A stretch of 64,000 nucleotides of DNA from Punica granatum (lineage: Eukaryota; Streptophyta; Magnoliopsida; Myrtales; Lythraceae). This document shows, piece by piece, positions 21,742 through 56,866 of this stretch. Within the stretch, counting starts at the first letter, position 1; each line of letters starts with the position of its first letter. The notes under the pieces are model-generated. The model saw only the letters and a list, made by a program, of their open reading frames with translations. It did not search any database and was not told the DNA's origin. Made by a program: the position numbers and the translations under genes. The DNA lies in assembly GCF_007655135.1 (NCBI RefSeq), contig NC_045127.1, forward strand, positions 7,077,001 to 7,141,000, given 5' to 3'.

Positions 21742-22296
21742 TTGAGGGGCAAGACTAAGCAATTTTTTATTGGCTGGATGCCACCACCATCTACATACTT
21801 CAAGCTTAATACGGACGGCTCCAGTAGGGGCAAGGTCAGGCAGGTGGAGGGGGGATTATCAGGGACTCAAATGGAAGCCGGATCTCGGGCTTTTTTTATG
21901 AACTTAGGACTGACTACTAGCGTAGTTGCTGAGCTGCGTGCTCTCCGACAAGGCCTCATTCTTGCGCTAGAGATGGGCATTGATCGGATTTGTGTGGACA
22001 TTGATGCTCGATTAGTGTTTGATTGGATTTGGGGTGTGAGTTCTTCTATTGGGCTTTTAAAAGAACTGATTGATGATTGCAAGACGCTTAGCAGGAGGTT
22101 CTTGAACATCAAACCTAGCCACACCTTTCGCGAGGCGAACAGTTGTGTGGACCTTCTCGCGAAAATAGGTGGAGATCAACTTGAAGTGCTTGTTGTCTTT
22201 GATCATGTTACAGCTTTCTTAGGTCTATCCTTGTTTAGTGATTCTACTGGAGTCTCGGGACCCCGTGGTATAACAAACCTCTATGTCTATGGATGA
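21742..22296 (+). pseudogene. LINE-type RNase H domain remnant
   Basis: An open frame of 184 codons (first codon TTG; first in-frame ATG at 21778) encodes a plant RVT_3-type RNase H domain of the kind at the C-terminus of non-LTR retrotransposons and in many degenerate gene copies. Visible motifs are FKLNTDGSS (first Asp), AELRALRQGL (Glu), CVDIDARLV (third acidic residue) and HTFREANSCVDLLAK (last Asp), so all four metal-binding positions remain. The segment between the first Asp and the Glu is out of register: the usual glycine-rich stretch is readable only in another frame, and the frame is restored at a run of seven T residues near 21891. No reverse transcriptase is seen upstream. It is a fragment, not a host gene. 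Confidence 0.8.
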
Positions 22297-42635: not shown

Positions 42636-43970
42636 ACGGATTACACATAAGCAATAGTGGAGGAATATACGATAGAATCAGGTGGGCTACTGCCCTCTCA
42701 ATTATTCGATTTTTTATATGAAGTCAAAGTTATTAATATATTTTTTTTGGTGCACGACCTAATATTCAGAAGACAAAGGATCTCGTAAAATTATTTGTTG
42801 GACCTACACGTATTTGAACGCATCTACAACCCAAAAATTTAAGTTGATAGGTTATTGGACTCAAATCTCATATAAACTTGTAATTTTTTTTTAATTTTTT
42901 TCGTGTGGGACAACATATCTCAACAAATCTCGATTAATTTAATTTGAGTCGGGTTATCTCACCAAACGTGAATAAGTGTTGTACCACTTGAACCATTCTA
43001 CGATGGTTTACGTTTATACTATGGTTCACATATATCTATATATAAGGCTTAAAGTGTGAGAGCAAGTCTTAACATGCACTATTTACGATAAACTAGCTAG
43101 TAAGCTCTTCATTATACGATGTTAAGAGTTTTCAAAAATCAATACCGGCAGATATCGATGCTATATTAATAGATGGCTCTAAATTATGATATTGGAAGAC
43201 AATATATAAATTGAGGACATAATATGACCCTAGAATTTTTCAAAAAAAAAAACATAGAAATACGTTGAGACACGCACTGCCCCCACTATATTTGGAGTAA
43301 GGAAAGTATAAGCTGCTTGCTCTTGTTATTGTTACGAAATCCTATGGGCTGAGAAAATTTTAAATCATCATACATGATAATGATGTGATCAGGAAAAATC
43401 AATAATATTATTTTAATTAAAAAATTAATCATAATTAATCGAGTGATTAATATTTATTATTTAATTTATTATAATTTAATTGGTATTTTCTTACTTCAAG
43501 CTACGAAGTAGGATTACCGAATAATCTATCTTTAACGAGAAAGCCTTCCATGAATCAGAGTTACCACGTCAGATTCATCTAGTGGTGTCACGAGCCAATC
43601 AAATTTCTTTGTAACACACGGTATTCGTATAATGCCATATCGAGTACCATTTCAGAATATATATTTTTTTCCCTTTTTCTTCCCTTTGGGCCGTTCTTCG
43701 TCCTTTTCTTTCCTTATCAGCGATCATGGATTTTCGTTTTTTTTTTCCCACCATCCTTTTGGGAGGGTGTCTACTTTTTGTTGGCAGGATTAGTGGATGT
43801 TTGAAACTGAGAGAACAATAATTATGTTTTTTTCTTATTATTTTTCTCTAGTTAATGTGCGAATTATTCTAATGGTAATGTATTATGATGTGCGGCAATT
43901 TGAAACTCAAACCAGTAAGGACGTTAAAATTACATTCATTTCCCATCAATTTATATTACATACCAAAGAC

Positions 43971-44090
43971 TGCAGTATAACATTGCCATCTATATTATAT
44001 TTTTAGGAATTCAACATATTTTTCAAAGACAACTATATAACATTACCATCTATATTATATTTTTAGGAATTCAACATATTTTTCAAATAT
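43971..44090. repeat. 60-bp tandem duplication
   Basis: The unit containing CATCTATATTATATTTTTAG and GAATTCAACATATTTTTCAAA occurs twice with a 60-bp period. Only a few bases differ. Confidence 0.85.
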
Positions 44091-44278
44091 ACATCAATTC
44101 TGTATTCCGATTTATATTTCAAAGATTCCATTAAACGGATCAATTTTCCCAGTAATCATCAGTAATCTAATAATACTGGAACTGGATTGCCCCTGCATTT
44201 CTTCTTATGGGGTGAAAATACTAATTGGAAAGAAATCTCTGAAATAGCTTCCAAGAAAAGTCTCCAAAGAAAGAAAAA

Positions 44279-44511
44279 GAGTCAGGTATACTTTTGGTCC
44301 CGAAAGATACCAGTGCCAAAGGTTTGGTCCCTCAAAATTTTTTGCCTCGGTTTTAGTCCCCGAATCACCATTCCGTCAGATGTTTTAGTCCTGCCGTCTT
44401 CTTGCGCGTGCCAATCGTGACGGAAATCTCACGTGGCGGCTGAGCTGGACCTAACTCCGTTAACCACCCCTTAAATTGCCAAAAACGGCATCGTTGTCTT
44501 CCTCGTTACCT
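44279..44511 (+). repeat. Left TIR of the MULE
   Basis: About 233 bp, roughly 80 percent identical to the inverted right end by eye. Identity falls off after a GCCAAAAACG-like block. As the outward-facing end it probably holds the promoter for the GRF gene. Confidence 0.9.
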
Positions 44512-44912
44512 GCTCGCCCTAAACGGCATCGTTATCCCCCATACTTGACAACAAAAACGATGCGTTCGAAGCCCTTCTTCAAGACCTGTTACTCGAAATC
44601 CCTAATTTGCCAATTACAAGCCCTCATTGTGATTCGGCAACACTAAATTCGAAATTGTAACTCCAATTGCAAATCTAGTGCAGAGGAAGGAAGAGGTTCA
44701 CGACTTTGCAGGAAGAAGTTCAAGGTTGGATAGTCGATTTACGATTCAACCGCAGAGGAAGGAAGAAGTTCGAGGTTGGCCACTCCAATTACAGTGGAGA
44801 ACGACGTTCGTGGCTTACAGCTCAATCACAGAGGAATGAATAAGTTACAAGTGAGGAAAATAAGCCTTAATCACTTGCTACTGCAATTACAATTCAATTG
44901 CAGTGTAAAGAG

Positions 44913-45275
44913 ATGAACAAAGATCGGAAGTTGAGCATGAGCTGTCATTCTAATTGCAGTTCAAGCATTTCCGGAGTTAGGTCGATTATTTGTTATTGTG
45001 GACAAAGAGCACGTCGGATGATCTCGAAGACCATTACAAATCATGATCGACCATTTTACAGGTGTCCTTTATGGAAAGATGAAGATCATACCTGCGGGTA
45101 TTTTGAGTGGGAAGACCAAATTCAGAACATTTCTTCAGTTGAAGACGAACTTCAGAGGAATGTAGTGTTGTTAAAAAGCAAGATTCTGGAGTGTGAGCTT
45201 CAATTGAAGAAGCTGTTGTGGTGGATTTTGACAATTGTAATGGGTGTGTTGGTGGTGAGGATGTCTGTGTTCTGA
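44913..45275 (+). CDS. GRF-type zinc-finger protein with coiled coil and membrane tail (MULE-borne)
   Basis: An uninterrupted 120-codon frame with an ATG start; the frame is open 15 bases further to a TTG. Residues 25-67 match the GRF zinc finger: ICYCG (C27, C29), ARRMISKT, RPFYRCPLWK (C51) and TCGYFEWED (C61, then the G-Y-F that gives the family its name). Residues 73-102 are heptad-like and probably coiled coil. Residues 103-117 are hydrophobic and look like one membrane span at the very C-terminus. GRF fingers bind single-stranded nucleic acid in NEIL3, APE2 and TOP3A; small plant GRF proteins with this coiled-coil tail are numerous but uncharacterised. It sits convergent to the transposase within the TIRs. 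It may be the element's accessory gene; the function is unknown. Confidence 0.85.
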   Translation: MNKDRKLSMSCHSNCSSSISGVRSIICYCGQRARRMISKTITNHDRPFYRCPLWKDEDHTCGYFEWEDQIQNISSVEDELQRNVVLLKSKILECELQLKKLLWWILTIVMGVLVVRMSVF

Positions 45276-46010
45276 GCTTGTGATGCTCGGCTGAGCTTGT
45301 TGGTTGTGATGATTGTTGTGGGGTGGTTCTGAGCTTGTTTATCGATGGATTGTAGGTAGTTTTAGTTAACTAGGATATGTTGCATTGCTGTGATAGTTTT
45401 AGAGCAGTGAGTTGGAAGTTTTTGCAAGTTGCTATCCAACTCAGCCCTATGTATGACTTGATCTGTATTGATGTTGGTAATGAAATGCGTTTGTCAAGTT
45501 CTTGTCCATTTGTCCATCTTCATCTGCAATTTTATGTCACTGCTCTGGAACTTGCATTGGTTAGCAAATGTTGGCACATGTGCCCACTATATTACATTGT
45601 ATGATTTGATCTGTATAGCATTGATTTCACCATATGCAATCTGTATAGCACTATGTTGGCATTTAAACCAAAAAATTGTATAGCAAATGCAACTTGCAAT
45701 CTGCAAACCATATGGAACTTGCAATTAATATACTAACTTGCAATTTGTAAACCATATGCACCAAAAAACTGTATTGCAGAAATGATGGAATACATCATAT
45801 GCTATATACATTTGCCAATATTGAAAGTCACCAAAATGGTGGACAAAAATCCCACTATGGTCCAAAGCCAATGGCCATAGATACATAAGGACAGTACTAT
45901 CATTCATTAACAGTTTTTTATACAAAATGCTATCAAAAGGTAATGGCCACAAATACTCCTAACATCACCAAAAATATTCTCAAACCACAATATTCTTTAT
46001 GCAAAATGAG

Positions 46011-49000
46011 CTACTTTTTTCGCTTCCTTAAATCCTTTTTTGGCTTGTTTGCTGGCTTCTTAGGTCCTCTTGGTACTGAGTCAACATGAGCACTGGAGGG
46101 CCACTAGCCAATTCTTGACACATGGACGGTGACATTCCCTGCAAAGCACAAGCATAAACACATCATTTCCTTGCATAGGAACTACCAGCACAATTAGGAA
46201 CCACCAACACAATCACAAGCACATCCGCAATCATAAGCCCAAAGATCATGCCATCAACACAATCACAGTAACATAAGAACAAAAACTCACATGCACAATA
46301 ATATTATGAACTAATGTAGTTGGTGCAATTGAATGCTGAGTCTGAGTTAATGAAGTTGACGTTACTGCACCATTGCTTGAATCATTTGTTGTTGGTTTTT
46401 GCCTCAATGATCTGACCCCTAACTTCTGAGGTCTCATTGGTGCTGGATGAGGTATGGTAGGCTGAGATATGTTGTCTGCTTGTTGAAACATCATCACTGG
46501 CTGTTCGACCATGCTGGATGCCACTCCCTAAAAACAATAGTTGGTCAATTTCCAAAATCAACAGCATAAAGAGCGACAAAATAGAGTTAAAGTTAGCATA
46601 CCTGCATATCTTCTCCTGTAAGCCTAGTCTCAGAAGGTAAAACTGAGGCACTTGGGCTGGTATCAGTCCTAACCTTCTTCATTTGCTTATCTTTCGATAT
46701 TGTACCATTGCATGTCTTCACATTGTGTCCTTTCTCACCACACCTTCCACATTATATTTCCTTATACTTCCTTTTAGACTTATATGGGTTTTGAGGAACA
46801 TCATTGGCCTTGGACCTTGTCTTTTTTGGACGACCACCACCCCTGCCAAATCTTGGAGGCTCAACAGGTTCTAGATCAAACTTTATCCATTAATCTTCAC
46901 CTCTCAGTGGTGCAATATAGGGAACATAAATCATCTCTCATGTTTCCTTAGAATAGCAAGAACTGTCATGCTTCTCTGCATCAATGCCAACAACATGCAT
47001 ACATGCTACTGCATGCTTACAAGGGATCCCACACAAATCTCACTCTCTACATGAACATGTTGACATCTTCAATTCAACAACATGCCGATGGTTGCTACTG
47101 TATATATGTTGGACTTGAAACCTTGCAAAGTCAGGGTCTCTAACCCAAATAGCATGCCATTTGTGACTATCATTCTTTGCTATTTCTAACTTTGACTGGG
47201 CAGTTGGTGTGATTGGACCTCTATATCTTGCAATTTGATTCCTACTAGAGTTCATCTTCCTCATCAAATATAACCTGATCTCCTCCAACATGTTGATGAT
47301 AGGTCTTCCTCGATACTTCAAAATAGCAGCATTGAACTGCTCATATATGTTATTGCACAGGCTCTGGTTCTTGGTATGTTTTTTGAAGGCTGCCCTGGTC
47401 CAGCTATGCTTGTCCAACAACTGGAGATATTCATAGGCTTCCTCACTGATACATCTAAACTCCTCAAAATGCCTTTCAACTCTCCCATGGTGTTTGATCT
47501 GGCACATTGCCATAGCTTTTTCCTAAGATTTACAAGGTGCCAATTTTTCCAAACATTTGCTTCTAGATGCTTCACACAGAACTTGGGAATTGTGTCTGGG
47601 CATAATTCCTTAATTGTTTCCCTAAGGCCCTGTCAAAGAAAATATAGAAAGTAATAGTTAGATCCATACAAAAAGATATGGAAACTGAAACAATAATATG
47701 AACCAAAAGACAATTACCTTTTGTATGTCTGATATGAACTCCCAACCATGTTCCCTTGGATCTCCAATGTCTTCAAGTAGCCTTCCCAGGAACTAGCTCC
47801 ATCTGTCTTTAGTCTCATGCTCGACAACTCCACATACTATTACATAAAAGGAGTGGTTTGGATCATGAGTGACAGTAACTAGAAAAGTGCCTCCATAGTA
47901 GACCTTCAAGAAGCATCCATCTAATCCTATCAGTGGTCTGCACCCAACTAGCAACCCCCTCTTACTTGCATCAAAGCATATGTATATCCTATCAAATATG
48001 GAAGGCAATCTCGAGTTTGGTCTGTCAACCCCAATTACTGCACTGGAACTCGGGTTGCTTGCTATAATCTCTCCACAGTAATCTCTTAATCTGGCATATT
48101 GCTTCTCTTCACAGCCTTAAATAAGCTTTTTTGCAATCCGCAAGGCATTACATATTTTCCATTCACCAACTTTAATGGAGTATACCTTAAATAAATATTT
48201 ATATGCATCCCCTCCAGTCATGTTAGGCATCATTCTCAGTTGGTTTACCAACTTCTCAGCAATCCATTTGTTGTCTGCTTGCTTATTCTGCAACTTCCTG
48301 GAGCAACTGTGATTGGGAATAAACTTCTTTAGCTGAAAAGCCCCATAAGGTTCTGACCAAGAACAAAATGCCTCCCACTCACAACCAGGTTGACATTTGA
48401 ATCTACATCTTACCTTATCATTCTTCTTCATAACCACTTCTCTCCCAATGGAAACTGTGTAATCTTTCACAACCTCTTTGAAAACCTGCAAGCTAGGAAA
48501 TAACATATCCAGTTGCAGCTGCACTTGACCATGTTCTGCATTCTCGTGAAATAATGCAGGCCTCTTTTCAGATTCATCATCACATCCCTTTAGACTTTGC
48601 AAATCTTCAGAATGATACTCTTGCTCCTTTACAAATTCATCAGAAGCTTGATGATCAGATGGTTCTTCCCCAGCTATTCTGTTCAATGCATTGCAAGCTC
48701 TCCATTTAGGTCTTCTTACACGAGAAGATTCAGCCCTGTTAGTTCCTTCTCCACCTTTTTCCCTTGCTTCTTCCCCTGCTTCTCGAATTGGAACTTCCCC
48801 TGTAGCTTGAACTTCCCCTGCAGTTTTCACTGTTTTATCCACTGAAGCACCCCATCCACCTTCCCCTGCCCTGGTACAGTCATCATATTCATCCCTATCT
48901 TGCCTTGGTACTCATGCATCATCTGAATCACTATCATCTAAACCATCATACTCAAGCTCCCATGCATCTTCATCTTGTTCTTCATCTTTATTATTGTCTT

Positions 49001-49379
49001 CACTGTCATCTTCATCAGAAACTACAAATTGTTGAACTTGATTTGCAAGTTCTGCTACAACAATCTCTTCTTCATTTTGGATGAAGTAGAACTCGATTTC
49101 TCTTACATTTCTAACAAATGCATATAGTGTGTGAGCATCTTGGTCTGTCTCAAAATCCCTCAGCCCTTCATGCACTTCTAAATTGGGAACCAACCACAAG
49201 ATCTTCTTTGGTTTTCTATATCCATGCTCAACATATAAGTTCTCGATGGTGGGTTTTGATACTAAGTCAATATCTACATCCTCCCATACATCAATTTCTC
49301 CACCAACATATTGCACATGGGGTTCAGAGACTAACTCACTCCCATGGTGAAAAATCAACGTGTACAAGTCTTCATCCAT
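46011..49379 (-). pseudogene. MuDR-type MULE transposase, broken
   Basis: Reads from ATG at 49379 to a TAG at 46011-46013. Domains in order are a PB1-like N-terminal domain (HHGSELVSEPHVQYVGGEID, about 49350-49290) followed by an acidic tract; a MuDR DNA-binding domain (VRCRFKCQPGCEWEAFCSW, near 48400); the MULE transposase core (CRPLIGLDGCFLK and FYVIVCGVVE, about 47940-47800); a SWIM zinc finger (STCSCRE...LCGIPCKHAVACMHVVGID, about 47055-46985); a CCHC knuckle (CGRCGEKGHNVKTC, near 46735); and a basic tail ending DLRKRKK. Introns can be placed at 47630-47717 and 46528-46601. It is dead: in-frame stops lie at 48912, 48117, 47793, 47040, 46938, 46890 and 46752, with a frameshift near 47455. 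Most stops look like C-to-T or G-to-A changes of Trp, Arg or Gln codons. Confidence 0.92.
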
Positions 49380-49944
49380 TATCTGTACATGTATTAAAAA
49401 ACAAAAAAACATCAGTATTGCTCTGAACCAGAAGCAGTGAACAACAAAACGGTTAACGATAAGAAGAAGGGACCACAAAGAAAAAGTGACGACAACAACC
49501 AAGAATGGGACAATAACAGAGAGCAGTGAACAAAAATTGGACGATAAGAAGGGACCACATAGCAAAGAAAAAAGGGTAAAAGGTCGTGATGGGAGAAACA
49601 AAAGCAAACAACAAATTGTAAGTTTTCCACTGCCATTCGACAACATTTGCTTCACAACTGTTTTTGTCATTCCCAAATATGCCAACTGCAATTCAACAAC
49701 AAAAAGTGAAAATGGAAGGGAATTTTGACTGACCAATGCCAAGAAACGAAACGGAATCACCCCCAAATTGCTTCGATTTAGTGTACTGCTACCTCAATTG
49801 AAATTTTTGCCTCTTCAATTTGCGAAGAACAGCAAACCCAAATCAAATTGTGCAACGATTAAAATATTTGGGGCTCTCGGTTTGACCTAGAAACCCAAAC
49901 GACAACGTCATAGAGTGATTTTGGCGGGGAATGGCAAAACTAGT

Positions 49945-50177
49945 TTCATCGAGGAAGGGAATGACGTCGTTTTTGCCAATTTGGGAGGTCATTAATGGAG
50001 TTAGGTCCAGCTCAGCCGCCACGTGAGATTTTCGTCACGGTTGACACGTGCAAGAAGACAGCAAGACTAAAACATCTGACGGAATGGTGATTCAGGGACT
50101 AAAACCGAGGTAAAAATTTTTGAGGGACCAAACTTTTAGCATTGGTATCTTTTAGGGACCAAAAGCATACATGACTC
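49945..50177 (-). repeat. Right TIR of the MULE
   Basis: Inverted partner of 44279-44511. It ends GTATGC..TGAC..C and lies next to the AAAGAAAAA target copy. It probably drives the transposase gene. Confidence 0.9.
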
Positions 50178-50764
50178 AAAGAAAAATCTAAGTTTACAAT
50201 TTTAAATGTACCCTGCACATTTCTCTCCATTAAATCTGATTTGATGGTTTAGGAACAGATTTTGTCGGGGAGATGGGATGTCTTGTGGGGCTACATCTAG
50301 GGTTTAATTTCATTATATTGTGTGCGTGCCAAAATTCTATGGCTCCTAATAACCTAATAACCTAACATGTAATTTGTACTTGTAAATATAAGGCGAGCTA
50401 TTTTCACCGGACAATCCAATTCTTGTACCAAATAGAAAAATTGTAATGAGATATATAATTATGACCACAATTTAAACTTTGGATAATGATAAGGACTATG
50501 ATCCAAAAAAATGAAAAAAATAAAAAAAGAGTCTATTAAAGCATATAAAAGATCATCATCTAACAACTTGAACTTTTAAATTGAACATGAGTTAAATTAT
50601 TAATTTATATCCGTCTTTCCTCTGAATGAATGCAAAATGACACCATAACATGAAGACACTTAATGGAAAGCAAGCCTCCGTGGTTCCCTTGGGACACCGT
50701 GCACACGCCTAAGTCATCGGGTCGCACCGTTCACTCACTTTCTCTCTTTGGGACGATCGAACCA

Positions 50765-52170: not shown

Positions 52171-55100
52171 CTAGTGACTGTTCTTCCCTTTCGAGGAGAA
52201 GAATCTGCTGAACCCTCTTGACTGTTTCTCGGGCGTCGTAGTGGACGAGGAAGATGAGGATCCTGACAAGGAAGGCCTATGCTTCGAATTCTTGGCATTG
52301 GCTGGAGGAGATCTCAGAATGTCTGGCTCGGCATCGGATTGGCTCCATAGGGAACTGAGAAGGTCTGGGTTGGACGAATCAGCACCATCCAGCTCTCCAT
52401 GATCGAGTTCTTGCAGTTTGTCGCTGCTACTTGTGGGCTCATCCTCGCCCTTTTGGCTCCCTCCCCCAATTGACGTTCTACTGAGGTCTGCTTGGGGATG
52501 CAGCGCCTTCAATTGTCTCCCGAGAACAAATATGGTCTCTTGGCATTCTGCCAACTTCTCTGCTGCAGCTGCTAGCTCTCTCTCCTGTATGATAGGAAAA
52601 TTATAGATATTAACTTCCATGCTGAATCATCTAAGTAGATAACACCTTGCCACCATGACCAAATGAATTTATAATCAGACACCAGCCGCACGACCAGTAA
52701 CCATTCATAGGTCACAAGAAAGATATGAACTCATTTTGTGCGGGGACAAATGTTCGGGACATAATGGGGTCAAGCAATTTCCTGCTCACCTGTTTGGTTT
52801 GCAGGTCGGCTTCAGTCTCCGGCAAAGAAGTCAACCTGCAAAAAAGATAGTAAAGTAGCAGTCAGAAACTGAGAATTATCATAATCAACCCTGCCATATA
52901 TTGTACCGAATGATTACAATATTGCGAAAAGGAGAAAAGAAAGCAAGATGAAACATTTGCCCAAGGGTTTGTTTGCATAAATCTACCCAACTAGTAATAC
53001 ATGTAAAAAGCCAAGCAAGAAGAAACTCATTGAAGGGGGTAAAGAGAGAAGAGGTGCTAACCTTGTTAACTGCTCTTCGAGATCTTTACATCTGGTCAAA
53101 GTATCCTGATGATTCACCTTTTCCTCCTCAAGGTCATTGCTCAAAGTCTCTGTTTTAGTTCGCAGAAGGTTCACCTCAGTTTCTAATTCCTGTGTACGCA
53201 CTTCAAGAGACCTGTATGACTCAGCCATACATTTTAGCTGAGTCTCAGACAAGCTATTTGACTTTTGAGCAGATGCGAGCTGCGATTTAGCTTCCGCGAG
53301 CAGCTGCTCAGTCTCTCGTAGTTGAGACTTCATCATCTCCAGATTCTCCGTTGATCTAGCCAAATTTAGAGCCATGTTATCTTTCTCTGACTTCAGTTGC
53401 TCGTAATCCTCCATTGAGACTTTACATGACACAGCAGCCTCTCCAAAACTTGAGACTAAATTACCGCAATCTGGAATCTCGGGATTAGAGGTTGGATCAG
53501 AGATATTGACAGAGCTGCTGCGATAGCACTCCATTGAAGAATCCTGAGGAGCCGCCTTATTCTCAGGCAATGCAACCTTGTCTATGCAATGGGGACTGTT
53601 AATTTCCGACTCAGCACCCTTGTAGCCCAGAATGTTAAATTTAAGCTCACTGACCTTAGTTAAAACTCGTGAAAGCTCGTGAACAAAGTCTAACAAACCC
53701 ATGCTACCACAGAGAACTCTGTCATAGGTGGCAGAGAACTCCTCAATTTGTTGTCTTAGTGCATCACCATGAGGAGATATGACGTGGACTGCCGTAGCTT
53801 CTTTGCCTAGAAACAGTACAAAGTCACGAATATGAGAAATAGCAGAAGCCAAATCTTGGCTAATTGTCTGAACAACCTCTGAGGGTAGCTTAACATCTTG
53901 GGCCAAACCGACCTCCTTCTGTGCACTAATGTCCACATCTGCAGGACAAGTTTCCGTATTGCAATTAGGTCCAGCATATCCATTCACATTTGACTTAGAG
54001 CTCTCCTGCAAATCCTGAGATGCATCCTGCACAGCTTGAGTGATATCATCCAAAAGTTTCCTTATCTCATTCTCCTTGGACATCAACTCAAATATTGAGG
54101 AGATCTTGGTTCGCAACTTCATCAATGGCAGCTGATCTTCATGATTCACAGCTGACAGTTCCACACCCAAAGACTCCTGATTTTCCAGGGATGCTCGGCC
54201 TTTGCTACTGATGATCTCTTCCGCCTTACTTTCAGAACCATCTCCAATGGAGGTGATTCCATTTGAATCTGCTGTTGAACATGCCAACTTCTCCATCTCT
54301 AAGAAGTCATCCATAAGTTCCAAGTCATGCACGCTATCAACTTTGTTTGATCGTCCAGGGCCCTTGTCCTTCTTAATCTGAGAGACATCGGAGACCAAGC
54401 TAGTGGCCCACGACTCAGCACAACTCCTCGCATCATCGTTTCCATCTTCTGACACGGATGTCAAGCTCAGAGGATTGCTGGCATTATGACTTAAGGAACC
54501 ATCAGCTGGGATCCGGACGACAGATTTAGGTGAACTTTTATCTTGACTGCTCAACTGTGGCTGTGCTTCCAGCATCTGAAGCCTGTTGGTCATCTGAGCA
54601 CACATGTTCCTCGAGGCCAGTAATTCGCTGTTACGCTTTGCCAAAGCTTCTTTAAGCATCTTTGTCTCCTCTTCCATGGCTAGTAACCGTTCTGTTAGGA
54701 ATTCATTCTCCTTGTGGAACTTCTGCACACTGTCAAGAGAATCAGCCACATGAGAAAGGTGAGGACTGGGAGGCTTTACAGGAGACCTCTTCAGTCTAGA
54801 GTCTCCGTACTCTCGCCCTAAACTCTCCACCTCTAACTTCATCTGGGCAAGAGCTGCAGGACCTGGCAATCTCTTGCGCACTAAACCACGTAGTCTTTGG
54901 CACTCTGCCTCTAGCTTAGCAATCTTTTTGACACCCTCCATGTGCTGCTTGTTGGCAGCTTCCGCGGACCTCACGCTCATGTTCTTCTCTTCATTTCGGA
55001 TATCAAGCTCTTTCGTGACCACATGAAGCTCATACTTGAGCGAATTTATTTCTCTCTCACATGACTCAATATTACTTTTCAAAATCTCTATTTCGGCCTC

Positions 55101-56866
55101 AGCCCGTGATTTTTCCTCACTTATTTGGATAAGCATGTTTGAGCGCTCTTGCAAAGACCTTGATAGCGCCGCATTTTCAGCAGCAGAGCGGAGGAGTTCT
55201 TGGTCAAGATTACCTATTTTTGCTTCTAGGTCATGCTTAATTTTTTCACACTGCTTGGTTTTAGTGAGAACAACATCCTGCAACTTCTGTTCATGCTCTT
55301 CCTTCAGATTCCGTATCTGTCTCATGCATTCTTTGAGGGCCCCATCTAGATGCGCTGCACGGTCTTCAGCAGTAAGCTTAGAAAGTGTTACAGACTCTAG
55401 GTGATTCTTCAATGCCAAGGCTTCTGCTTCAGCCTTTTCCCAGCCTGCGGCATCAGCTAGAATGTCAAGTATGGCACAAACAATGGAAAATCCCATGCAA
55501 CATATCAGCAATCCTTTTCGTGTGTCATATATGCAAGATACCTGAAACTGCTTCCTCAGCAACCTTGGCATGCTGCTTCGCCAGGTTGTCCTTCGCAGTT
55601 ATCTCCGCATGGGCAGAAGTCAATTGTTCATCCAATTCCTTCATATGCTCTTCCATTGTCTGAATCTGTTCTTCATTAGACCGTACTTGCTCCTCCAAAC
55701 CAGATAAGTGAGAATATTGCTCAACAGAAATTTGAACATAGCTTGGTTTTTTGTAATTTTCCTGTCCATGCAAAAGAAAACAATTCATAATGGAACTAAA
55801 AGAAGTTACACGATGAAGTTGACGATTGTCATGCAAGCTAAAAAATTGGAATTACAATCTCTCCGCATTATAGAATTAGAATACAAAGACATTGGGCTTG
55901 AGCAGATGCATACGACAAGCAAATGCATGCATGTATTAAAGCTTCGACCTTTTAGTAAGAAATAAGAGAAAACAACAATAGGCACATAAGAATGTAAGCA
56001 CTGAAAAATTGCCTGGTCAAAGATTCATGTGAAATATTAACGCATGATAATATTTCCTCCTCCCCTTGTCTATAAATATGAGAAAGCATTAATTGTAGTA
56101 TTAGGAGGCATAGAATTGTTAACTCCACAAAGTCACTATAATATTTGGAAGAAATCAACACAGTCCGGGTTTGCTCCTTTCTGTCTCAAAAATGATGTAT
56201 GAAAAGAAACACAAGAAACACATTACATAGGTTTTGTTAAGATTGTTGGAGCAGTTGCAGGGAACCAGAGTTTCCACCATGTCTTGTTAAAAAGTATACA
56301 ACGGAAAAGGATGGGTAGGCTTTGCACCAAATGGGAAAGTATATTATAACTGTGTAACTTTGTTTGACAAAACAGCAACATAGGTAAAGGAAGACTACTT
56401 GAAGAAGAAATTTCAAAAGAAGCCATTTCAGAACATCTTAAGGTGTGGGTCAGTACTTCAGTCTGATAGTGACACTGCAAGATCTCAATTTGTTGCAGGA
56501 CTCTATCCGGGTGAAAGGCTATGCATTCAGAAGAAGTCTTCCAAGCATCGTCAAGTACTAAATGCTAGATGGGAAACAGATGACAAGGACGCAAAAATGA
56601 GGAAAATGGACTTGTAGAAGTAGTCACTTTATGTGTATCGAATTAATAAATGACAACATAACATTCCCCAAAAATGGAAATAGTAATGGTAGTTTAATCA
56701 TCAAAATGTTAAGAATTTTCGATTAATAACTTAATCCAACCTGATCGCTCTGTGGTTTAGCTGGAGCTGAAGCAGCAGCAGCTGAGTCTAATAGAGCCGC
56801 GGCTTTCTCGGCCGCTGCCTTATCCGATGAAGATTTCCTCTTCCACGGCCAACTCCGTTTATCCAT
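52171..56866 (-). CDS. FPP4: Filament-like plant protein (FPP4/FPP6 type)
   Basis: Five coding exons, in transcription order: 56866-56741, 55761-55542, 55444-53062, 52835-52790 and 52584-52171. All junctions are GT-AG and phases agree, giving 1,062 residues. The N-terminus MDKRSWPWKRKSSSDK followed by an Ala-rich stretch, and the Ser-rich C-terminus ending FSRFFSSKGKNSH, are hallmarks of the family. Long heptad-rich coiled coils fill residues 43-320, with further coiled coils before the tail. The invariant block LRGLVRKRLPGPAALAQMK lies near residue 300. FPP proteins (DUF869) were found as partners of the nuclear-envelope-associated MAF1 and resemble filament proteins; related members affect microtubules in xylem vessels. 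Arabidopsis FPP4 is about 980 residues and FPP6 about 1,050. The symbol rests partly on SAUR synteny and could be another FPP number. Confidence 0.93.

What the first reader, a model, noticed from the sequence alone, without database searches (positions are those of the whole stretch)
44279..50177. MULE that pairs a MuDR transposase with a GRF zinc-finger gene
The sequence shows a complete element with 233-bp TIRs and a perfect 9-bp target duplication, a MuDR transposase on one strand, and convergent to it a short GRF zinc-finger gene with a coiled coil and a C-terminal membrane segment. Convergent two-gene MULEs are known (mudrA/mudrB in maize; VANDAL elements with the VANC anti-silencing gene), but I know of no described role for a GRF protein as the second gene. 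Inference: it may be an accessory factor for transposition, repair of the excision gap, or escape from silencing. The many small, uncharacterised plant GRF-coiled-coil proteins in annotations could be copies of this MULE gene.
Basis: partly seen in the sequence, partly recalled or inferred. Interest (0 to 1): 0.85.

Follow-up and report, generated by a model that had tools for sequence, protein, structure and literature searches.

The report
Plant transposon carrying a GRF gene
A jumping gene in this plant genome carries, besides its transposase, a small zinc-finger gene of the GRF type, and the same pair in the same facing arrangement recurs in many related jumping genes of the genome, so the small gene is a lasting part of this transposon lineage whose job is still unknown.

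Summary
In detail: about 230-bp inverted repeats, an exact 9-bp target duplication, an open GRF zinc-finger gene (120 aa, hydrophobic C-terminal tail) and a convergent MULE transposase. This copy's transposase is dead (7 in-frame stops, one frameshift). The genome is Punica granatum (pomegranate), by protein and contig-length matches.

A one-off gene capture is refuted within this genome. Four copies with four different target duplications carry the GRF gene. Of 184 GRF places, 115 have a MULE transposase within 12 kb (random 4.8, maximum 12); in 114 the nearest is convergent, median 2.6 kb away. Trees of 14 GRF-transposase pairs share 8 of 11 splits (Mantel r 0.86). GRF dN/dS between two subfamilies is 0.35. 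Transposase exons under 40% identical to one query lack it (0 of 27); 69 GRF places have no listed transposase.

So GRF is an inherited, constrained second gene of a MULE lineage. Two annotated pomegranate 'GRF-type' proteins match such genes; look-alikes occur across flowering plants, where linkage was not testable. I infer a membrane-tethered, ssDNA-binding transposition helper; function is untested. My searches of open-licence papers found no description of it.

The parts
44270..44278 (.). left 9-bp target-site duplication AAAGAAAAA
   Evidence: exact match to 50178-50186
44279..44511 (+). left terminal inverted repeat (GRF side)
   Evidence: 40 matching places listed in the genome, of 157 candidates
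44913..45275 (+). GRF gene, 120 aa, open reading frame
   Evidence: 150 matches scored in the genome, of 255 candidates
44988..45119 (+). GRF zinc ribbon (PF06839)
   Evidence: E 1.3e-12; sequence match to NEIL3, top fold neighbours NEIL3 and APE2 Zf-GRF (E-values not significant)
45111..45212 (+). long helix (predicted) between zinc ribbon and tail
   Evidence: AlphaFold2 model of the E2 homologue, helix 67-121, carried over to the window's protein
45213..45269 (+). hydrophobic C-terminal segment, possible membrane anchor
   Evidence: hydropathy 2.15; hydrophobic tail in the 12-protein alignment
47718..49379 (-). transposase exon 1, 554 codons, 3 in-frame stops
   Evidence: no stop in copy E2
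48357..48521 (-). MuDR DNA-binding domain (PF03108)
   Evidence: E 7e-4, below curated cut-off
47799..47930 (-). MULE transposase domain, first part (PF10551)
   Evidence: E 1.2e-4 here, below cut-off; E 5.3e-8 in copy E2
47630..47717 (-). transposase intron, GT-AG
46600..47629 (-). transposase exon 2 with SWIM-like and CCHC-knuckle-like stretches (by eye); one frameshift and four stops; C-terminal end not determined
   Evidence: SWIM PF04434 in the related GRF-bearing element L058
49945..50177 (-). right terminal inverted repeat (transposase side)
50178..50186 (.). right 9-bp target-site duplication AAAGAAAAA

Best explanation
The GRF gene is a stable, vertically inherited second gene of a lineage of MULE transposons, not a captured host fragment. 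Transposase and GRF gene face each other, each starting inside one terminal repeat. Shown in this genome: recurrence, fixed geometry, tree agreement, constraint on the GRF protein. Inferred: the GRF zinc ribbon binds single-stranded DNA (as has been proposed for Zf-GRF domains of repair proteins), the helix oligomerises it, and the hydrophobic tail tethers it to a membrane such as the nuclear envelope; it would act as a transposition helper at exposed transposon ends or excision gaps, in the place that mudrB holds in maize MuDR. My odds: stable second gene 0.97; selected for a function of the element 0.85; integration or gap-repair helper 0.4.
For: Four copies with different 9-bp target duplications (E0 AAAGAAAAA; E1 TAATCTTTA, E2 TAAGTAAAA, E3 AAGATTAAT) each hold the GRF gene at the same place. 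25 of the 30 closest GRF loci have a match to the family's TIR upstream, 17 of the 25 at 600-672 bp. 115 of 184 GRF places have a MULE within 12 kb, 114 nearest convergent, quartiles 2344/2638/3112 bp; random placement gives 4.8 (max 12) and 1.2 convergent (max 6). GRF within 12 kb of 48 of 63 transposase exons at 50% identity or more to one query exon, 22 of 42 at 45-50%, 4 of 18 at 40-45%, 0 of 27 below 40%. Trees of 14 elements: 8 of 11 splits shared, Mantel r 0.86 (P 1e-4); 7 chosen groups r 0.75 (P 0.0066). dN/dS between GRF subfamilies A and B 0.35, A-C 0.36, B-C 0.38; A-B tail 0.22, zinc ribbon 0.35. Zinc cysteines, R-x-F and W-x-D invariant or nearly so in 12 proteins. Nearest solved sequences and folds: NEIL3 and APE2 Zf-GRF.
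Against: No function was measured. Of 29 GRF copies analysed at codon level 19 have a stop or are incomplete. Within subfamily A dN/dS is 0.68, and the helix segment shows little constraint between A and B (0.86); the bootstrap interval 0.19-0.72 came from 6 of the 15 A-B pairs. A related MULE group with 457-aa open transposase frames showed no GRF frame in 3.3 kb of the one member read, so MULEs of this superfamily seem able to live without it. Seen from the transposases, 208 of 325 listed places have no GRF within 12 kb, and of the 117 that have one 114 are convergent, one same-strand and two on the 5' side. The Foldseek E-values are not significant (0.15-0.65). 69 of 184 GRF places are unpaired. 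Membrane localisation rests on hydropathy and a predicted helix.
Confidence: 0.6

Rival explanations
1. The GRF protein is an anti-silencing factor, working like VANC of Arabidopsis VANDAL elements: it goes to element DNA or RNA and removes or blocks silencing of the element.
For: VANC is the described anti-silencing product of a multi-gene MULE (passages read, PMC5735166, PMC10398659). A small zinc-finger protein kept by many families would fit.
Against: No DUF1985 or DUF287 (named for VANC) in the GRF proteins scanned (Pfam). VANDALs are described as having degenerate TIRs, this family has long TIRs. The GRF protein is short, and a hydrophobic tail is odd for a chromatin factor (inference).
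Confidence: 0.2
2. The GRF gene is an old passenger: captured once in an ancestor and carried along without benefit to the element.
For: Many copies are broken or incomplete (19 of 29); dN/dS within subfamily A is 0.68; related MULEs live without it.
Against: Constraint between subfamilies (0.35), finger, helix and hydrophobic tail kept down to about 26% identity, and presence with transposases of seven chosen groups are unlikely for a useless passenger.
Confidence: 0.08
3. The GRF gene is a regulator that limits or times transposition, for example by holding the transposase at a membrane.
For: Hydrophobic tail and long helix; the gene is encoded beside the transposase and could be co-expressed from the other TIR (inference from layout).
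Against: No interaction evidence; self-limitation genes would tend to be lost by the fastest copies (inference).
Confidence: 0.12
4. One-off capture of a host gene by this copy, or MULEs inserting beside host GRF genes.
For: MULEs are known for acquiring host gene fragments (start of the abstract of PMC6446971).
Against: Same gene in E0-E3 at separate insertion sites and inside the TIRs; 114 of 115 nearest pairs in one orientation with narrow spacing; largely congruent trees.
Confidence: 0.02

Closest known systems
maize MuDR (mudrA/mudrB)
   Same: Long-TIR MULE with two genes, transposase and a second gene; the roughly 200-bp TIRs act as promoters and mudrB is reported as a novel protein required for integration (passages of PMC8224964).
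   Different: That mudrB lacks a GRF finger is my recall; no MURB sequence was fetched or compared. No role is known for the GRF protein.
Arabidopsis VANDAL elements with VANC
   Same: MULEs with accessory genes beside the transposase (passages).
   Different: VANC has DUF1985/DUF287 and VANDALs degenerate TIRs; here a GRF finger with a hydrophobic tail and about 230-bp TIRs.
MUSTANG genes (domesticated MULEs)
   Same: MuDR, MULE and SWIM domains, and PB1 in MUGB (passages of PMC3435246).
   Different: Host genes derived from transposons; GRF has 0 occurrences in that main text.
Zf-GRF repair proteins NEIL3, APE2, TOP3
   Same: Same zinc-ribbon domain; described as potential ssDNA binders for Topo III (passages of PMC10969213).
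   Different: Those are host enzymes with the finger as one part; here a stand-alone finger with helix and hydrophobic tail inside a transposon.
Spectre, Ghost and other MULEs with a zinc-finger ORF
   Same: Two-ORF MULEs with a separate zinc-finger ORF (passages of PMC6446971).
   Different: Their fingers are C2H2 (Spectre) or RING (Ghost), in invertebrates; GRF has 0 occurrences in that main text.

Membership tests
MULE (Mutator-like element) | long terminal inverted repeats | tested here: met
   about 230 bp, 86-89%
MULE (Mutator-like element) | target duplication of about 9 bp | tested here: met
   exact 9 bp in E0, E1, E2, E3
MULE (Mutator-like element) | MULE transposase domain | tested here: met
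   PF10551 above cut-off in E2 exon 1; below it in the window's broken copy
MULE (Mutator-like element) | intact transposase in the window copy | tested here: not met
   7 stops and one frameshift; this is decay, not non-membership
PB1-MuDR-MULE-SWIM transposase group | PB1-like N-terminal domain | tested here: inconclusive
   no Pfam hit in the pieces scanned; PF26130 is precomputed for related pomegranate proteins P0064 and P0065
PB1-MuDR-MULE-SWIM transposase group | SWIM finger | tested here: met
   PF04434 E 8.6e-5 in the transposase end of the GRF-bearing element L058; in the window the matching stretch is broken by a stop and gave no SWIM hit as far as scanned
GRF zinc finger family PF06839 | match above curated cut-off with zinc ligands | tested here: met
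   48 bits against 25.9; cysteines conserved
MuDR mudrB (MURB) | second gene convergent to the transposase inside the TIRs | tested here: met
   layout only; the maize layout is recalled
MuDR mudrB (MURB) | sequence homology of the second protein to MURB | not tested
   no MURB sequence at hand
VANC | DUF1985 / DUF287 domains | tested here: not met
   no such hit in the GRF proteins scanned

The most novel reading that the evidence does not exclude
A widespread angiosperm MULE lineage encodes a dedicated transposition helper of a kind not described before: a membrane-tethered, single-strand-binding GRF protein, and many of the 'GRF-type domain-containing' or 'At4g04775-like' proteins annotated in flowering plants are genes of these transposons or were domesticated from them.
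Probability: 0.45. Interest if true: 0.85.

Novelty: new variant of a known kind. Interest (0 to 1): 0.72.

Why it matters
It gives a context to a large class of small unnamed plant proteins: in pomegranate many of these genes sit in transposons, which matters for gene counts and for interpreting GRF 'family expansions'. It adds another kind of second gene to plant MULEs beside mudrB and VANC and makes a clear question testable: what does a DNA-repair-type zinc finger do for a transposon, and why is it attached to a hydrophobic tail. Lineages with and, it seems, without the gene live in the same genome and form a natural comparison.

Tried and rejected
One-off capture was tested and rejected. 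From the GRF side the single exception to the geometry in the final count (C1:23986056) also has a convergent transposase exon 2.4 kb away. An earlier exception (C2:28710160, beside a 786-aa MULE-domain frame) found a convergent transposase in a later search. From the transposase side two 5'-side cases and one same-strand case remain among 117.

Led nowhere: GRF protein alone against the protein database (3 candidates, none significant); viral contigs with GRF and with a transposase piece (pattern matches, none confirmed); profile A2 in viral and genome contigs (not accepted, too diverse); plasmids (no match). Literature, seen as listings: 'GRF zinc finger' with 'Mutator-like' 0 papers; two of 'zf-GRF', 'MuDR', 'transposable element' 610 papers, the 20 listed without 'zf-GRF'; 'GRF-type zinc finger' with 'transposase' 0; 'GRF zinc finger' with 'transposon' 7, by title expression, QTL or breeding papers; 'GRF-type' with 'MuDR' 0; 'At4g04775' 2; 'zf-GRF' with 'transpos' 3, by title a topoisomerase review, a spinach GWAS and a cancer paper; Pfam accessions together 3, none with PF06839. 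General MULE listings. Only open-licence PMC texts were searched; Repbase and most subscription journals were not.

Limits of the counts: every genome search scores only the best candidates (GRF: 150 of 255 and 150 of 231; transposase: 78 of 922, 150 of 456, 150 of 559, 131 of 715, 150 of 569), so presence counts are lower bounds and absence is weak. Random placement keeps the chromosome but not repeat density, and the lengths of some chromosomes were approximate in the first runs, so the true chance level may be higher; the orientation result does not depend on it. Rank correlation of GRF and transposase identity to the query was 0.86 over 47 pairs but 0.34 (P 0.08) among the 27 distant ones. 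In the codon analysis L048, counted as intact, is joined from two matched pieces, L029 has an altered end, and one of the 30 loci (L049, overlapping L053) was dropped. In the trees two GRF sequences (D2, D6) are incomplete.
Full report
What is there. The element at window 44279-50177 has inverted ends of about 230 bp and an exact 9-bp duplication, AAAGAAAAA, on both sides. On the + strand an ATG at 44913 opens a 120-aa frame with a GRF zinc ribbon (PF06839, 48 bits against a cut-off of 25.9) and a hydrophobic C-terminal segment. On the - strand lies a MULE transposase in at least two exons joined by a GT-AG intron. In this copy it carries three stops in exon 1 and a frameshift plus four stops in exon 2. 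So the structure is whole but the transposase is not. No second copy lies in the window.

Where it is. The window is G000:C1:7077001-7141000 of a 320-Mb genome. Database proteins named Punica granatum match our loci at 100% over 133 aa (P0002 to L074) and 98.6% over 145 aa (P0001 to L072), and contig lengths given for Punica proteins equal those of C1, C2, C4, C6 and C8 here. The genome is pomegranate.

The family. A TIR search lists 40 places. Four long copies hold the GRF gene: the window (E0), E1 (L009, 93.6% identical over its length), E2 (L010) and E3 (L011/L012, with a large insert), each with its own 9-bp duplication. The GRF frame is open in E0 and E2, has an altered end in E1 through an 8-bp insertion, and has one stop in E3. 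A fifth copy, E4 (85.6% identical), shows one end and the transposase but neither the other end nor GRF in the stretch read. Short non-autonomous elements of 1.0-1.4 kb share the TIRs: of seven pairs checked, four have exact duplications, two alike ones (L005, L006) match at 8 of 9, one (L007) has none.

Recurrence. A GRF protein search of the genome scored 150 matches. Of the 30 closest, 25 have a match to the family TIR upstream, 17 of them at 600-672 bp; two of the 25 (L046, L047) are short or weak matches. Four more distant ones were read over 8.4-8.5 kb each: L057 and L059 have the same convergent layout with transposases 35-57% identical to the family's, depending on the stretch; L059 has inverted ends of 739 bp (87%) but no clear target duplication; L058 has the end of a transposase on the right side and strand, 5.8 kb away; in L056 a frame that reads like a Ty3/gypsy polyprotein follows the GRF gene and no transposase was seen. 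Combining two GRF searches and one place read from L063 with five transposase searches gives 184 GRF places and 325 transposase places. 115 GRF places have a transposase within 12 kb; in 114 the nearest is on the opposite strand with its 3' end towards the GRF gene, and in the last one a convergent exon lies 2.4 kb away. Random placement gives 4.8 on average (maximum 12 in 500 trials) and 1.2 convergent (maximum 6). Seen from the transposases, 117 of 325 places have a GRF within 12 kb: 114 convergent, one same-strand, two on the 5' side. 69 of 184 GRF places have no transposase listed; some of them are family members with a TIR (for example L040, L046, L055), others are unexplained.

Not every MULE has it. 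By identity to exon 2 of L057 a GRF lies within 12 kb of 48 of 63 exons at 50% or more, 22 of 42 at 45-50%, 4 of 18 at 40-45% (at a median of 11 kb, so these are doubtful) and 0 of 27 below 40%. In the D8 clade 27 of 45 places have it. A group of four alike MULEs with 457-aa open frames has none listed, and 3.3 kb read beside one of them holds no GRF frame. Of four places first counted as lacking GRF and then read, two have one (L061, L063) and two do not (L062, where only 0.9 kb was read, and L064), which shows that listed absences are soft.

Common descent. For 14 elements trees of the GRF protein (124 columns) and of the transposase core (302 columns) share 8 of 11 splits; the three conflicting splits on each side have supports of 0.79 or less. 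Distances correlate (Mantel r 0.86, P 1e-4; 10 elements r 0.82, P 2e-4; 7 chosen groups r 0.75, P 0.0066). The proteins keep the zinc cysteines, R-x-F, W-x-D, a helical stretch and, where the sequence reaches that far, a hydrophobic tail, with single exceptions among decayed copies. dN/dS between subfamilies is 0.35 (A-B), 0.36 (A-C) and 0.38 (B-C), within B 0.34, within A 0.68; for A-B by part 0.17 (N-terminus), 0.35 (zinc ribbon), 0.86 (helix), 0.22 (tail). The codon bootstrap on 6 of the 15 A-B pairs gives 0.19-0.72. Of 29 copies analysed, 19 had a stop or were incomplete and were left out.

Beyond this genome. The profile of nine GRF proteins finds 61 proteins; the 59 with a name are from flowering plants, including potato and tomato, lettuce, maple, tea and pineapple; two have no name. 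36 of the 53 with enough sequence after the finger end in a hydrophobic segment. Two bear the name 'At4g04775-like' in the part shown. Transposase relatives occur in many flowering plants too (120 of 163 listed). Whether the two are linked there could not be tested.

What it probably does. The fold search ranks NEIL3 and APE2 Zf-GRF domains first, without significant E-values, and sequence search finds NEIL3 at 1.5e-8. Such domains are described as potential ssDNA binders (PMC10969213, passages). In maize the second gene mudrB is reported to be needed for integration and both genes to be driven from the TIRs (PMC8224964, passages). I therefore favour a tethered ssDNA-binding helper for integration or gap repair (0.4), ahead of anti-silencing (0.2). 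All of that is inference.

Verdict. The association is real and the interpretation as a conserved second gene stands for this genome. The kind (two-gene MULE) is known; a GRF second gene was not found in the searches listed in Tried and rejected.

Noticed in passing
window 52983-55571 (-): Open frame of 862 aa, rich in helical repeats to the eye; looks like a filament-like plant protein (label recalled, not tested).
   Followed up: no
window 21742-22296 (+): 184-aa frame resembling a plant RNase H-like domain of LINE origin (my reading, not tested).
   Followed up: no
window 43964-44083: Two tandem 60-bp repeats, 92% alike, just left of the element.
   Followed up: no
L005, L006, L008, L020, L022, L023: Short 1.0-1.4 kb elements with the family TIRs and exact or 8-of-9 target duplications: non-autonomous derivatives.
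   Followed up: partly
L025 and L021 (C2, about 38.815-38.819 Mb): A different MULE with the family's TIR sequence twice in tandem near its transposase start.
   Followed up: no
C5:10490266, C2:29026847, C7:25328508, C4:10413250: Four alike MULEs with 457-aa open frames and no GRF listed beside them: apparently a GRF-less group.
   Followed up: partly
C1:41806696, C2:3704916, C2:22286677, C3:15285782, C1:55229529: Five alike MULE frames of 555 aa with no GRF hit within 12 kb.
   Followed up: no
L056:3643-8046: 1468-aa frame reading like a Ty3/gypsy polyprotein beside a GRF gene.
   Followed up: no
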